A stretch of 16,917 bases of DNA, from positions 1 through 16,917 of the forward strand of contig JAKOZM010000493.1 in the NCBI GenBank assembly GCA_029779995.1. The letters are read 5' to 3'. Made by a program: the position numbers and the translations under genes. A model generated the notes under the pieces. It had not been told where the DNA came from, ran no database searches, and worked only from the letters and a program-made list of their open reading frames with translations. The stretch comes from Actinomycetes bacterium. Lineage in GTDB: Bacteria > Actinomycetota > Actinomycetes > S36-B12 > UBA10799. Below are positions 10 through 12,642 of the stretch, piece by piece. Position 1 is the first letter of the stretch. Each line of letters opens with the position of its first letter.

Positions 10-82
10 TAGCCCCGACGGGATTCGAACCCGCGCTACCGCCTTGAGAGGGCGGCGTGCTAGGCCACTACACAACGGGGCC
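10..82 (-). tRNA. tRNA-Glu (anticodon CTC)
   Basis: Read on the minus strand this folds as a cloverleaf. The anticodon arm is CCGCC-CTCTCAA-GGCGG with anticodon CTC, which reads GAG. The T arm is GCGGG-TTCGAAT-CCCGT. The acceptor stem begins GGCCCCG and pairs with CGGGGCT, giving a G-U at the first pair, with A as discriminator base. CCA is not encoded. It lies 23 bp downstream of tRNA-Gln on the same strand, so the two are probably one transcript. Both are substrates of the GltX encoded further right if this organism uses the usual indirect Gln-tRNA route. Confidence 0.95.
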
Positions 83-105: not shown

Positions 106-177
106 CTGGGGTACCAGGACTCGAACCTAGACTAACTGGACCAGAACCAGTCGGGCTGCCAATTACCCCATACCCCA
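106..177 (-). tRNA. tRNA-Gln (anticodon CTG)
   Basis: The minus-strand cloverleaf starts TGGGGTAT and ends ATACCCC-like with discriminator G; this is the typical bacterial tRNA-Gln pattern. The anticodon loop is TTCTGGT with CTG as anticodon, which reads CAG. The T loop is TTCGAGT. CCA is not encoded. It is the upstream member of a Gln-Glu tRNA pair. The promoter must lie to the right, between position 178 and the divergent FIST gene; I see no clear -35/-10 pair there. Confidence 0.95.
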
Positions 178-5852: not shown

Positions 5853-7433
5853 TCAGCCACGTGGCCCCGCCGACAACAACCCGTATGCGACCGCATCCTC
5901 GAGGGCCATCCACGAGGCGGCGATGACGTTCTCATGCACTCCGACGGTGTCCCAGCGCTGGGTGCCGTCGCTGGACCCGACCAGGGTCCGGGTGACGGCG
6001 GCGGTGCCCTTGACACCCTCCAGGATGCGCACCTTGTAGTCCACGAGTTGGACCTCGGCCAGTTCCGGATGCACCTCCTGCAAAGCAGACCGCAGGGCGT
6101 TGTCCAAGGCGTTCACAGGCCCGTTGCCCTCGCCCACCGCCACGACCCGGCGTTCGCCGATCACCACCTTGACGGTGGCCTCGCTGACCACCTCGCCGTC
6201 AATACGTTGCTCGACGATCGTGCGCCAGCTCTCGACGCTGAAGGGACGCAAACGCCCGTGTTCCCGCTCGTCCACGATCAGCAGCTCGAAGGAGGCGTCG
6301 GCGGCTTCGAACGTCCAGCCCTTGGCCTCCATCTCCTTGACCCGATCGGTGACGCGCGACAGCAGCGCCGGGTCACGGGAAAGGTCGTAGCCGAGCTCCT
6401 TGCCCTTCAGTTCCACCGACGCCCGGCCGGCCATCTCGGTTACCAGGACCCGCATGTCGTTGCCGACCGCACCGGCGTCCTCGTGGTTGTACAACTCGTA
6501 GTTGACCTTCAGCGCACTGGCGTGCAGACCGGCCTTGTGCGCGAAAGAGCTCACGCCCACGTACGGCTGATGGGTGTCCGGGGCGATGTTGGCGATCTCG
6601 GCGATGGCGTGGCTGATCCGCATCGACTCCCGCAGATGGCCGGCGGGCAGCACCTGCATGCCCAGTTTGAGTTCGAGATTGGCCGACACGACAAACAGGT
6701 CCGCGTTGCCTGTGCGCTCGCCGTAGCCATTGGCGGTGCACTGGGCGTGGGTGACACCGGCCTGCACAGCCGTGACCGTATTGGCCACTGCACACCCGGT
6801 GTCGTCCTGACAGTGGATGCCCAACCGGCCCTCGACGCGCGCGCGCACGTCGGAGACGATCTCGTGGATCCCGACCGGCAGCATCCCGCCGTTGGTGTCG
6901 CACATGACCGCGGCGTCGGCGCCAGCCTGCAGGGCTGTGCGGACCACGCTGACCGCGTAGTCGTTGTCATGTTTGTACCCGTCGAAGAAGTGCTCGCAGT
7001 CCACGAAGACCTGCCGGCCCTGGGCGCGCAGGTACTCCACCGTTTCGCGCACCATGGCGAGGTTCTCCTCGGGGGTGGTGCGCAACGCCTCGTGGACGTG
7101 ACGGATGTCGGACTTGGCCACCAGTGTGACGACCGGTGCCTGGCTGGCCAGCAGTGCGGCCACCTGCGGATCCTGCGCGACGGGCACGCCGGCCTTGCGG
7201 GTCGCGCCGAAGGCGACCAGGGTGGCATTGCGCAGTTTGAGTTCAGTGGCGGCCCGGGCGAAGAACTCGGTGTCCTTGGGCATGGCGCCGGGCCAGCCCC
7301 CCTCGATGAAACCCACGCCGTACTCATCGAGCAGGCGGCAAATGGCGAGCTTGTCCTCCACCGAGAAGGAGATGCCCTCACGCTGGGCGCCATCGCGCAG
7401 CGTGGTGTCGAACAACTGGAACTGCTCGTCCAT
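5853..7433 (-). CDS. cimA: Citramalate synthase
   Basis: This 526-aa enzyme of the isopropylmalate/homocitrate synthase family condenses pyruvate with acetyl-CoA to (R)-citramalate. That reaction is the entry to the threonine-independent route to 2-oxobutyrate and isoleucine. It has an HMGL-like TIM barrel with FDTTLRDG near residues 8-15 and the NGYGERTGNADL loop. A C-terminal LeuA-type regulatory domain (about 390-526) is the usual site of end-product feedback. The metal-site motif reads H207-C-Q-D-D rather than the HxHND of LeuA. I start at the ATG at 7433, because GGAAGGA lies 5 nt upstream; for the ATG at 7439 the same SD would abut the start codon. It is preceded by a leader peptide and an intrinsic terminator (separate entries). 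The citramalate assignment over another 2-isopropylmalate-synthase-like function rests on overall family resemblance. Confidence 0.9.
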   Translation of the reverse strand: MDEQFQLFDTTLRDGAQREGISFSVEDKLAICRLLDEYGVGFIEGGWPGAMPKDTEFFARAATELKLRNATLVAFGATRKAGVPVAQDPQVAALLASQAPVVTLVAKSDIRHVHEALRTTPEENLAMVRETVEYLRAQGRQVFVDCEHFFDGYKHDNDYAVSVVRTALQAGADAAVMCDTNGGMLPVGIHEIVSDVRARVEGRLGIHCQDDTGCAVANTVTAVQAGVTHAQCTANGYGERTGNADLFVVSANLELKLGMQVLPAGHLRESMRISHAIAEIANIAPDTHQPYVGVSSFAHKAGLHASALKVNYELYNHEDAGAVGNDMRVLVTEMAGRASVELKGKELGYDLSRDPALLSRVTDRVKEMEAKGWTFEAADASFELLIVDEREHGRLRPFSVESWRTIVEQRIDGEVVSEATVKVVIGERRVVAVGEGNGPVNALDNALRSALQEVHPELAEVQLVDYKVRILEGVKGTAAVTRTLVGSSDGTQRWDTVGVHENVIAASWMALEDAVAYGLLSAGPRG

Positions 7434-7449
7434 ATTCATCCTTCCAACG

Positions 7450-7480
7450 AAAAACCCCCGGGCCCGAAGGCACGAGGGTT
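7450..7480 (-). terminator. Intrinsic terminator (attenuator) in the cimA leader
   Basis: On the minus strand AACCCTCGTGCC and GGCCCGGGGGTT form a 12-position stem. It has one mismatch and one G-U pair, is closed by a TTCG tetraloop, and runs directly into five T residues. It lies after the leader peptide and ends about 11 nt before the cimA ribosome-binding site. It would therefore stop transcription before cimA, not end ilvE, whose stop is 130 nt upstream with a separate leader ORF in between. Confidence 0.82.
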
Positions 7481-7481
7481 A

Positions 7482-7512
7482 GCGCATCGACCAAGCGGTT
7501 CAGCCGATGCGC
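7482..7512 (-). promoter_or_regulatory. cimA leader hairpin overlapping the leader-peptide stop
   Basis: GCGCATCG and CGATGCGC pair perfectly over 8 bp (7505-7512 with 7482-7489) around a 15-nt loop that contains the leader peptide's TGA. A ribosome stalled on the ATT-ATT codons just upstream would block this stem. This is the place of the 1:2 pause hairpin of a classical attenuator. I could not trace a convincing antiterminator by eye. Confidence 0.7.
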
Positions 7513-7538
7513 CCTTCAATAATGAGCGCGGTACGCAC
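7500..7538 (-). CDS. cimA leader peptide (MRTALIIEGRIG)
   Basis: This 12-codon ORF starts with GTG and ends with TGA inside the loop of the leader hairpin. It encodes Leu-Ile-Ile (CTC ATT ATT) in mid-peptide and a third Ile two codons before the stop, so 4 of 12 residues are branched-chain. There is no Shine-Dalgarno. A CACACT hexamer ends 6 nt before the GTG, the spacing of the other leaderless starts in this window. Order and spacing (leader ORF, stop-overlapping hairpin, terminator, cimA) match ribosome-mediated attenuation that senses charged Ile and perhaps Leu tRNA. The peptide is inferred from arrangement, not from homology. Confidence 0.65.
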   Translation of the reverse strand: MRTALIIEGRIG

Positions 7539-7544
7539 ACGATC

Positions 7545-7550
7545 AGTGTG
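7545..7550 (-). promoter_or_regulatory. Candidate -10 box for the cimA leader transcript
   Basis: CACACT lies 6 nt upstream of the leader-peptide GTG on the minus strand, about 60 nt after the ilvE stop. It fits the loose nAnnnT pattern and spacing seen before other starts here. No -35 box is recognisable. If it is not used, the leader is transcribed from the leuB promoter through ilvE. Confidence 0.35.
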
Positions 7551-7609: not shown

Positions 7610-8701
7610 TCAGGCCAATTCGAACATCCAGGCGTGCACGTCAGGATCGAGGCCACTCTGGATTCCCAGCAAAGCGTTGCGCACGGCCATCGTGACCGGG
7701 CCCGGACCACCTTCACCGACCGTCCAATTGCCCACCCGGCTCTTCACCTCGCCGACCGGCGTCACCACAGCCGCGGTCCCACAGGCGAATACTTCAGTGA
7801 TCTCATTGGCCGTGCAGCCAGCCTGCCACTGCGTGACACTGATCGGCTCCTCCGATACGGGGATGCCCAAGTTGTGCGCGAGGATCATGATCGAATCGCG
7901 GGTCACGCCTGGCAGCAACGAACCTGTCAGCGGGGGGGTGACCAGACGGGCCGAGTCACCGTGGCCGAAGACGAAGAAGAGGTTCATCCCGCCCATCTCC
8001 TCGACCCACTCGTGCTGCGCAGCATCGAGCCACACGACCTGGTCACAGCCGTGGGTGGTGGCCTCCGCCTGGGCCACCAGGGAGGCGGCGTAGTTGCCAG
8101 CGCACTTGGCCTCCCCGGTGCCCCCCACCGCCGCGCGCACGTAATCCGGGGTCAGCCACACCGACACCGGCGCCACGCCGCGCGGGAAGTACGCTCCGGC
8201 CGGCGAGGCGATCAGCAGGTATCGATAGGAGTCAGCCGGCTTCACACCCAAACCGACCTCGGTGGAGAACATGAACGGGCGCAGATAGAGCGACTTCTCG
8301 GAATCTGTGGGAACCCACGCGCCATCCACCGCCAACAACTCCACCAGCGACTGCAGGAACATCTCGACGGGCAGCTCGGGCATGGCCAGACGGCGCGCCG
8401 AGTACTGGAACCGTTCGGCGTTCTTCATGGGCCGGAAGGTGCGGATGTGCCCGTCGGCATGCCGGTAGGCCTTCATCCCCTCGAAGATCGCCTGCCCGTA
8501 ATGGATGAAGTTCGTGGCCGGGTCCAGCGTGACGGGGCCGTACGGCATCACCTGGGCGTCGTGCCAGCCCCGGTCACGGTCGTATTCGATGCTGACCATG
8601 TGGTCGGTGAAGTGCCGGCCGAAGCCGGGGTTGGCCAGGATCTCCTGGCGCTGCTGGGCACTGCGCGGCGCACTCGCAGGGTTGCGCGTGAACGTGATCA
8701 C
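7610..8701 (-). CDS. ilvE: Branched-chain amino acid aminotransferase
   Basis: This 363-aa fold-type IV PLP enzyme carries out the last step of leucine, isoleucine and valine synthesis and the first step of their breakdown, exchanging the amino group with glutamate. The PLP-binding lysine is K199 in [15 protein letters not shown]. Other family marks are [34 protein letters not shown] and [15 protein letters not shown]. The length is that of the actinobacterial/large BCAT type. It starts with GTG at 8701, overlapping the leuB stop by 4 nt (GTGA), so it is translationally coupled to leuB. About 70 nt downstream begins the cimA leader. Confidence 0.96.
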
Positions 8702-10081: not shown

Positions 10082-10097
10082 CCCCGGGCACAGCTAG

Positions 10098-10342
10098 AAT
10101 GTCAGTAGCGGGGACTTTACGTGCGTCCCTCTGACAACTTCAACTGCTGGTCCCACCCAGGCAGCAAGAATGTCAGTAGCGAAGACTTTACGTGCGTCCC
10201 TCTGACAACTTCAACTGCTGGTCCCACCCGGGCAGCAAGAATGTCAGTAACGAAGACTCAACGTGCGTCCCTCTGACAACTTCAACTGCTGGTCCCACCC
10301 GGGCAGCAAGAATGTCAGTAACGAAGACTCAACGTGCGTCCC
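10098..10342. repeat. 71-bp tandem repeat, about 3.5 copies
   Basis: Units start at 10098, 10169, 10240 and 10311. The last is cut after 32 bp, and a degenerate piece lies just left of the first. Copies are nearly identical: unit 1 is the most diverged, while units 3 and 4 agree over their shared part. Each unit has TGTCAG at its start and CTGACA about 25 bp later, then a second inverted pair, TGCTG with CAGCA. The period is not a multiple of 3 and the reading frame drifts, so it does not encode a protein repeat. There are no unique spacers, so it is not a CRISPR array. No function is evident. Confidence 0.92.

Positions 10343-10785: not shown

Positions 10786-12642
<1,857 letters not shown>

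What the first reader, a model, noticed from the sequence alone, without database searches (positions are those of the whole stretch)
7431..7550. Complete-looking ribosome-mediated attenuator upstream of cimA
Seen directly on the minus strand: a 12-codon ORF containing Leu-Ile-Ile and a third Ile, a perfect 8-bp hairpin enclosing its stop codon, then a 12-position stem with a TTCG loop and TTTTT, and then the cimA SD. Attenuators of this class are known before ilvB, trp and leuS genes of actinobacteria; I know of none described for cimA. Citramalate synthase feeds isoleucine synthesis, so an Ile-sensing leader makes biological sense. The antiterminator pairing could not be found by eye. A GAAGG to CCTTC pairing (7513-7517 with 7466-7470) is one weak candidate.
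Basis: partly seen in the sequence, partly recalled or inferred. Interest (0 to 1): 0.75.

Follow-up and report, generated by a model that had tools for sequence, protein, structure and literature searches.

The report
Isoleucine-sensing attenuator before cimA
The DNA in front of this bacterium's citramalate synthase gene encodes a tiny isoleucine-rich peptide followed by two RNA hairpins, the second a transcription stop signal, and the same arrangement recurs before cimA in many actinobacteria, so it very probably switches isoleucine synthesis on only when isoleucine runs short.

Summary
On the minus strand a 12-codon ORF (7538-7500, VRTALIIEGRIG*) overlaps a 14-bp hairpin (P1), which abuts an intrinsic terminator with TTCG loop and T5, just before cimA. 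A covariance model built without the window and its nearest relative still finds the site (62.3 bits, E 4.9e-15; next best 7.1 bits). In the window's probable order, at least 98 of 127 genomes with a cimA N-terminus have the leader 13-106 nt upstream. Both hairpins covary (0 of 500 shuffles). The last Ile codon ends 5 nt before P1 in 72 of 87 leaders. Related leaders precede ilvB, leuA, leuS and leuB, and their codons follow the gene product: Ile for cimA, Leu for leuA/leuS, mixed for ilvB. This is very probably an Ile-sensing, ribosome-mediated attenuator. It is not a complete trp-type one: a strong antiterminator is absent, unlike in trp leaders from Streptomycetales tested alongside. Only a 3-4 bp candidate exists. 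No Rfam family matched, and no paper that I found covers cimA. Regulation itself is untested.

The parts
7545..7550 (-). -10-like element CACACT of the leader's own promoter, preceded by TGC (7553-7551); GTG start codon 6 nt downstream, so the leader mRNA is probably leaderless
   Evidence: sequence; NA...T at 6-7 nt before the start codon in 82 of 87 homologous leaders. The sigma-70 consensus scan found no promoter here.
7500..7538 (-). leader ORF, 12 codons plus TGA: V R T A L I I E G R I G
   Evidence: ORF in 87 of 91 distinct homologous leaders, window included; closest relative VRTALIIDRRIG*
7518..7523 (-). regulatory Ile-Ile codons (ATT ATT), ending 4-5 nt before P1
   Evidence: Ile codon to P1 distance is 5 nt in 72 of 87 leaders, 2-8 nt in all 87
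7481..7513 (-). P1 hairpin: 14-bp stem 7513-7500 with 7494-7481, loop 7499-7495; nearly invariant GCGC at its base; encloses the leader stop codon
   Evidence: 9 of 12 consensus pairs with changes on both sides, 92.0% of cells paired
7450..7480 (-). intrinsic terminator: 11 bp with one mismatch, TTCG loop, T5 at 7454-7450; directly abuts P1
   Evidence: 6 of 9 consensus pairs with changes on both sides, 94.5% of cells paired
7482..7485 (-). GCGC at the 3' base of P1, candidate partner of GTGC 7474-7471 in a weak 3-4 bp antiterminator when the 5' base of P1 is covered
   Evidence: predicted only: MFE of the masked RNA in the window and at least 3 such pairs in 83 of 91 leaders; not found in general in ilvB/leuA/leuB leaders
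7440..7445 (-). Shine-Dalgarno GGAAGG of cimA
   Evidence: sequence
5853..7433 (-). cimA, citramalate synthase (mechanical ORF 5853-7439; likely start ATG 7433)
   Evidence: NCBIfam TIGR00977 595.8 bits, cut-off 450
7610..8701 (-). ilvE, branched-chain aminotransferase, gene upstream of the leader
   Evidence: NF009897 493.2 bits
8698..9726 (-). leuB, 3-isopropylmalate dehydrogenase
   Evidence: NF002898 556.4 bits

Best explanation
It is an isoleucine-responsive, ribosome-mediated transcription attenuator of cimA. Transcription starts at or close to the leader GTG, and a ribosome follows at once on this leaderless ORF. With enough charged tRNA-Ile it passes the Ile codons, terminates at or inside P1 and leaves; P1 refolds, the abutting terminator forms, and transcription stops before cimA. 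When tRNA-Ile is uncharged the ribosome waits on the Ile codons. Their fixed distance to P1 (5 nt) makes it cover the first ~5 nt of P1, the nearly invariant GCGC, so the base of P1 cannot close and polymerase more often reads through the terminator into cimA. Shown by sequence and comparison: ORF, Ile codons, both hairpins, their geometry, conservation, and the match of leader codons to gene product. Inferred: leaderless start, ribosome stalling, termination, and the sense of regulation. Open: how opening the base of P1 weakens the terminator. The best candidate is a short re-pairing of the freed GCGC with CGC/GUGC in the terminator's 5' arm.
For: Leader ORF with Ile codons, GTG/ATG start and a stop at or in P1 in 87 of 91 distinct leaders. 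Covariation of P1 and terminator: 175 double-changed cells against 48 in shuffles, 0 of 500; 93.1% of cells paired against 28-66% when slid. Hold-out detection of the window at E 4.9e-15. The 30 best loci of a class-wide search with that model all precede cimA (some of the 30 belong to genomes whose leader is in the model). Codon identity tracks gene product among relatives: cimA Ile; leuA and leuS Leu-Leu-Leu; leuB Val/Ile; ilvB mixed, as LVLI or LVVI. Ile-to-P1 spacing is nearly fixed (sd 1.0 nt) while Ile-to-U-tract varies (sd 10 nt), so position on P1 seems to be what matters. CimA makes a precursor of Ile (pathway knowledge). The Mtb ilvB1 leader was reported to lose induction when its LVVI codons were changed (PMC13236596, passages).
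Against: No strong mutually exclusive antiterminator: region 2:3 pairing is not better than permuted (z +0.5) and the 2+3+loop stretch folds worse than permuted (z +5.1) in 56 leaders below 80% identity. With the 5' side of P1 masked the RNA still folds the terminator (44 leaders, window). Codon replacement in the S. coelicolor ilvB leader reportedly had no effect (stated in PMC1262725, part 1 of 3 read). 29 of 127 genomes of the order have no leader among the listed matches. 4 of 91 aligned leaders have no ORF with ATG/GTG in the place searched (L215, L219, L224, L226). Four Streptomyces leaders have ATT ATG, so a single Ile, at the regulatory place (L019, L029, L058, L073). No expression data.
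Confidence: 0.86

Rival explanations
1. Classical trp-type attenuator: region 2 (3' arm of P1) forms a strong antiterminator with region 3 (5' arm of the terminator) when the ribosome stalls.
For: The parts list is otherwise that of a classical attenuator. In the window, GCGC:GUGC pairs in the masked RNA, and GGU-CGA with UCG-U-GCC could pair by eye.
Against: No 2:3 coevolution and apparent avoidance. After masking, region 3 is paired with mean probability 0.34 (highest 0.55) in 91 cimA leaders against 0.98 in 16 trp leaders.
Confidence: 0.12
2. The terminator merely ends the ilvE transcript, and the short ORF is a chance or unrelated reading frame; cimA is expressed from a constitutive promoter.
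For: The site lies in the ilvE-cimA gap; intrinsic terminators between genes are common.
Against: The ORF, its Ile codons and a -10-like box at fixed spacing are conserved between ilvE and terminator; related elements precede ilvB, leuA, leuS and leuB with matching codons.
Confidence: 0.04
3. Control by something other than Ile-tRNA, such as a T-box, a ligand-binding riboswitch or an RNA-binding protein that uses P1.
For: P1's base GCGC is conserved beyond what pairing needs.
Against: No Rfam family but tRNA at gathering score in the window or in 17 related loci; P1 upper stem and loop vary in sequence and length; codons follow gene function.
Confidence: 0.03

Closest known systems
ilvB(NC) leader-peptide attenuators of actinobacteria (Seliverstov et al. 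2005, PMC1262725; ilvB-II motif of Corynebacterium, PMC10272879; Mtb ilvB1, PMC13236596)
   Same: Short BCAA-codon ORF overlapping a first hairpin, followed by an intrinsic terminator, before a BCAA gene. The cimA model itself finds ilvB leaders, also in the genome of the window's closest relative (L237, 48.4 bits).
   Different: cimA leaders have Ile runs, where ilvB leaders have mixed LVLI/LVVI codons. The antiterminator described for ilvB-II (P1 loop with 3' shoulder of P2; passages) has no support here: loop-1:region-4 z -0.6, and P1 loops can be 4 nt (L010).
leuS leader attenuators of Streptomyces (PMC1262725, passages)
   Same: Leader ORF, P1 and terminator; leuS leaders with LLL codons are found by the cimA model (L131, L142, L146).
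   Different: Other gene and codon; reported there with an antiterminator.
trp attenuators of Streptomyces (PMC1262725)
   Same: Leader codons, stop near hairpins, GC-rich terminator.
   Different: trp leaders have a strong 7-bp GGCGGCC:GGCCGCC antiterminator; cimA leaders do not.
LEU element before leuA (PMC1262725)
   Same: Leader ORF rich in the end product; the window's own leuA has a Leu-rich one at 10815-10856.
   Different: Described as a pseudoknot; the window's leuA leader is not matched by the hold-out cimA model.

Membership tests
Actinobacterial BCAA leader-peptide attenuator (ilvB/leuS kind) | short ORF with codons of the end product upstream of the gene | tested here: met
Actinobacterial BCAA leader-peptide attenuator (ilvB/leuS kind) | first hairpin overlapping the end of the ORF, then intrinsic terminator with U-tract | tested here: met
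   P1-terminator spacer 0 nt in 74 of 88 scored leaders, 1-3 nt in 14; 3 of 91 not scored
Actinobacterial BCAA leader-peptide attenuator (ilvB/leuS kind) | detectable kinship of the RNA with ilvB and leuS leaders | tested here: met
   of 50 loci read (of 55 listed matches of the cimA model), 48 precede cimA (17), ilvB (20), leuA (4), leuB (4) or leuS (3); 2 unresolved (L124, L148)
Actinobacterial BCAA leader-peptide attenuator (ilvB/leuS kind) | expression rises when the amino acid is scarce, dependent on the codons | not testable with these tools
   needs reporter or RNA-seq
Classical trp-type attenuator | strong antiterminator excluding the terminator | tested here: not met
   only a weak 3-4 bp candidate
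T-box or other Rfam cis-regulatory RNA | match to the family's covariance model | tested here: not met
   only tRNA at gathering; best sub-threshold hit Atu_C8, 20.1 bits against 50 required
LEU element | conserved pseudoknot before leuA, no terminator | not tested
   pseudoknot not modelled; the cimA leader differs in having a terminator

The most novel reading that the evidence does not exclude
The cimA leaders are an attenuator class without a true antiterminator. P1 and terminator are selected to fold independently while touching end to end, and a ribosome stalled at a fixed 5 nt from P1 works as a toehold that opens only the basal GCGC. Terminator efficiency would then depend on the closed base of the neighbouring hairpin, or on a 3-4 bp re-pairing, rather than on a competing long helix.
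Probability: 0.3. Interest if true: 0.75.

Novelty: new member of a known kind. Interest (0 to 1): 0.52.

Why it matters
Citramalate synthase opens the threonine-independent route to isoleucine. If the reading is right, many actinobacteria control this route through an Ile sensor separate from the mixed Ile/Leu/Val sensor that related genomes carry on ilvB. Leader codons then give a cheap test of what each paralogous BCAA gene is for: for example, the leuB genes with Ile/Val leaders found here. The missing antiterminator also makes an old puzzle testable, since Seliverstov et al. [quoted passage not shown]

Tried and rejected
Region 2:3, 2:4, 1:3, 1:4, loop 1:2, loop 1:3, loop 1:4 and upstream-ORF pairings: none coevolves, while the 1:2 and 3:4 controls do (1:2, 3:4, 2:3, 2:4 and the 2+3+loop fold repeated on representatives). 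A general mini-antiterminator: consistent in cimA leaders (83 of 91; 5 of 5 distant cimA leaders above shuffles) but not in ilvB (7 of 16 above shuffles), leuA (2 of 4), leuB (2 of 4) or leuS (2 of 3). The effect in cimA is modest: mean pairing probability 0.87 against 0.69 in shuffles, native above its own shuffle mean in 84 of 91. Leaders are related, so the 2:3 avoidance z-scores are not exact probabilities.

Rfam sub-threshold hit Atu_C8 (E 0.099, 20.1 of 50 bits): rejected as chance.

Faulty or limited steps. One search stopped with an error after two results and was redone. The leader peptides were chosen among frames by content of I+L+V, which favours BCAA as a whole though not one of the three. 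One search picked wrong frames in the Streptomyces rows and for L157; one search replaced it but still gives wrong frames for L117 and L120, a shifted core for some rows, and no ORF for 6 rows (L126, L129, L132, L136, L141 of ilvB; L137 of leuB), and L156 was left out of its leuA row. One search used 41 of the 50 loci (six Streptomyces cimA and three ilvB rows left out), and P1 is doubtful in at least L113-L115, L138 and L160. One search used 32 of the 50. Five of the 55 matches were not fetched. In one search the start codon nearest model position 30 was preferred, which favours constant start spacing; one search uses the same starts and tries -10 spacings of 6, 7, 5, 8, 9 and 4 nt in that order. 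One search used places copied; both listings were cut, so 98 is a lower bound (G013 and G091, for example, have unlisted weak matches). The alignment was fitted to the model's structure and left out some near-duplicate loci.

Positive control: the first attempt with the best trpE loci found no leader; loci upstream of weaker trpE-like matches gave 16 trp leaders in 20 loci. That these genes are fused trpE is my inference.

Literature: 20 of 55 papers were listed, all with no occurrence of citramalate synthase; of the 4 papers three were not opened; the one paper was not opened, and the locus tag SCO5529 used there is recalled.

Full report
What is there. The minus strand of the window reads leuB (9726-8698), ilvE (8701-7610), a 170-nt gap, then cimA (NCBIfam citramalate synthase TIGR00977, 595.8 bits against a cut-off of 450). 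In the gap, in order, lie a TGC-CACACT box resembling an extended -10 (7553-7545), a GTG 6 nt further on, a 12-codon ORF VRTALIIEGRIG ending in TGA at 7500, a 14-bp hairpin P1 (7513-7481) that holds the stop codon, an abutting intrinsic terminator (7480-7450) and the cimA SD. The hairpins are far more stable than shuffled sequence (z -5.2, 0 of 200). The plain sigma-70 scan found no promoter. cimA probably starts at ATG 7433 rather than 7439, from SD spacing (sequence).

Is it conserved? A scan of GTDB species genomes with the window's CimA kept the best 80 loci: uncultured actinobacteria, several titled Candidatus Nanopelagicales, then Streptomyces and Actinoplanes-type species. Most carry a short Ile-rich ORF and terminator upstream of cimA; L004 and L030 show none. 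In the order of G002, 138 of 148 genomes have some match to CimA, and of 127 genomes with a CimA N-terminus 98 have a listed leader 13-106 nt upstream. In 11 of the 30 loci no leader was found: in ten of them (L083, L093, L095, L097, L099, L102, L104, L108, L109, L110) the end of ilvE runs up to cimA, read by eye, and in L106 there is a gap without one. Of the 29 genomes without a listed leader 25 are 2.1 Mb or smaller, but small genomes with a leader also exist (G125 0.8 Mb, G099 1.0 Mb), so a link with genome size is only a hint. A model built from 29 leaders without the window and L081 finds the window at 62.3 bits, E 4.9e-15, with nothing else above 7.1 bits in the window. With that model 176 of 246 genomes of the class have a match at E 0.001, and all 30 loci returned, the 30 best, precede cimA; some of those genomes contributed leaders to the model.

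Structure. Over 91 distinct leaders, P1 and terminator pairs are kept in 93.1% of cells; 15 of 21 pairs show double-sided change, 175 cells against 48 expected from shuffles (0 of 500), and sliding by 1-3 columns drops pairing to 28-66%. The alignment was fitted to this structure, which leans the counts towards it; the MAFFT alignment of 44 leaders, not so fitted, also shows double-sided changes in P1 but none in the terminator pairs it predicts. The basal GCGC of P1 hardly varies.

Reading frame and geometry. 87 of 91 leaders have an ORF, with start GTG (70) or ATG (17), stop TAG (73), TGA (9) or TAA (5), and Ile codons near its end. The last Ile codon before P1 ends 5 nt before it in 72 of 87 and 2-8 nt in all; the stop codon overlaps the first base of P1 in 72 of 87 and lies 10-13 nt into it in 8, as in the window. 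The distance from the Ile codons to the U-tract varies ten times as much. In 82 of 87 a -10-like NA...T lies 6-7 nt before the start codon, which points to leaderless mRNA, as reported for S. lividans leaders (PMC8079986, passages). Some Streptomyces leaders have a single Ile (ATT ATG; L019, L029, L058, L073).

Relatives that test the meaning. The cimA model also finds leaders of other genes in 296 genomes of the phylum (48 with a match). Of 50 loci read (of 55 listed matches), 17 precede cimA, 20 ilvB, 4 leuA, 4 leuB, 3 leuS, and 2 are unresolved. The peptides change with the gene: cimA ends such as SIIIIR, AIIIC and ASIIIIA; leuS NLLLR and FLLLT; leuA NLLLT, GLLLR and ELLLR; ilvB LNLVLIT, or LVVI in L239 and L240 of the window's probable order; leuB VIIIE, IVIIS and VVIIR. 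This is the strongest argument that the codons are read, because the RNA frame is shared while the codon identity follows the product. The genome of the closest relative also has an ilvB leader (L237, 48.4 bits; ilvB confirmed).

The missing antiterminator. In the classical scheme the 3' arm of P1 (region 2) must pair with the 5' arm of the terminator (region 3). Matched regions 1:2 and 3:4 pair much better than permuted ones (z -15.6 and -9.6), but 2:3 does not (z +0.5), and the stretch 2+3+loop folds less well than permuted (z +5.1) in 56 leaders below 80% identity. The wider set of 41 leaders gives the same sign (z +2.4 and +4.3). As a positive control I took trp leaders from Streptomycetales: in the 16 of 20 loci with the pattern, region 3 pairs in a 7-bp antiterminator before the terminator's 3' arm appears (mean probability 0.98), against 0.34 in 91 cimA leaders. 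What remains is short: if a stalled ribosome covers the first 5 nt of P1, the freed base of P1 pairs with region 3 or its loop in at least 3 pairs in 83 of 91 cimA leaders, mean probability 0.87 against 0.69 for shuffled region 3 and loop; in the window it is GCGC with GUGC. It does not hold in general for ilvB, leuA and leuB leaders.

Mechanism. I commit to Ile-tRNA-dependent attenuation of transcription (0.86), with ribosome position on the base of P1 as the sensor step. Shown: parts, geometry, conservation, codon-product match. Inferred: leaderless start, stalling, termination, direction. Unsettled: the last step, where a weak toehold-like re-pairing is my best guess and dependence of the terminator on a closed P1 the boldest reading.

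Compared with what is known. Leader peptides before ilvB, leuS, trp and cys, and the LEU element before leuA, are described in actinobacteria (PMC1262725; part 1 of 3 read, passages). [quoted passage not shown] The S. lividans reannotation describes eight leader peptides, none for cimA (PMC8079986, passages). Corynebacterium ilvB-II and Mtb ilvB1 are experimental relatives (PMC10272879 and PMC13236596, passages). PMC4833913 and PMC2965389 do not contain the words cimA or citramalate (term searches). No paper that my searches of the held library brought up joins cimA or citramalate synthase with a leader peptide or attenuation in the sense meant here (the one joint hit, PMC13158618, mentions them in separate passages). 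Most subscription papers are not held. Rfam 15 has no matching family. Verdict: a new, widely conserved member of a known kind, with an unusual lack of antiterminator.

Noticed in passing
window 10815-10856 (+): Leader ORF before leuA: GTG CTG CGC GGG CTC CTG CTT ATG TGC CGC GGC GAG GCC TGA (VLRGLLLMCRGEA), with TACCCT 6 nt before the GTG; looks like the leucine leader of the LEU element (name from PMC1262725). The leuA ORF of the finder (10786) probably starts too far upstream.
   Followed up: partly
window 10091-10342: Tandem array of a 71-bp unit, 3.5 copies, 96% matches, between the leuB start and leuA; nature unknown.
   Followed up: no
L128, L133, L137, L157: leuB genes with Ile/Val-rich leaders (AVIIIE, LIVIIS, IVIIR, QVVIIR) found with the cimA model, as if leuB there answers to isoleucine.
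   Followed up: partly
L083, L093, L095, L097, L099, L102, L104, L108, L109, L110: Genomes of the window's probable order in which cimA follows ilvE directly and no leader is seen. 25 of 29 genomes without a listed leader are 2.1 Mb or smaller, though some small genomes keep it; possibly lost in genome reduction.
   Followed up: partly
window, L020, L062, L070: Where the usual TAG at the P1 base is changed, the ORF runs on to a TGA inside P1 (GGCTGA), a backup stop.
   Followed up: partly
window 10-82 and 106-177 (-): Two tRNA genes; tRNA pairs also lie in the cimA loci L010 and L036.
   Followed up: no
L130, L134, L149, L150, L152: cimA about 50% identical to the window's, with leaders of 3-4 Ile codons and, in four of five, terminators of a different sequence (GCCGCCC/GGGCGGC), so the system extends to distant actinobacteria.
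   Followed up: partly
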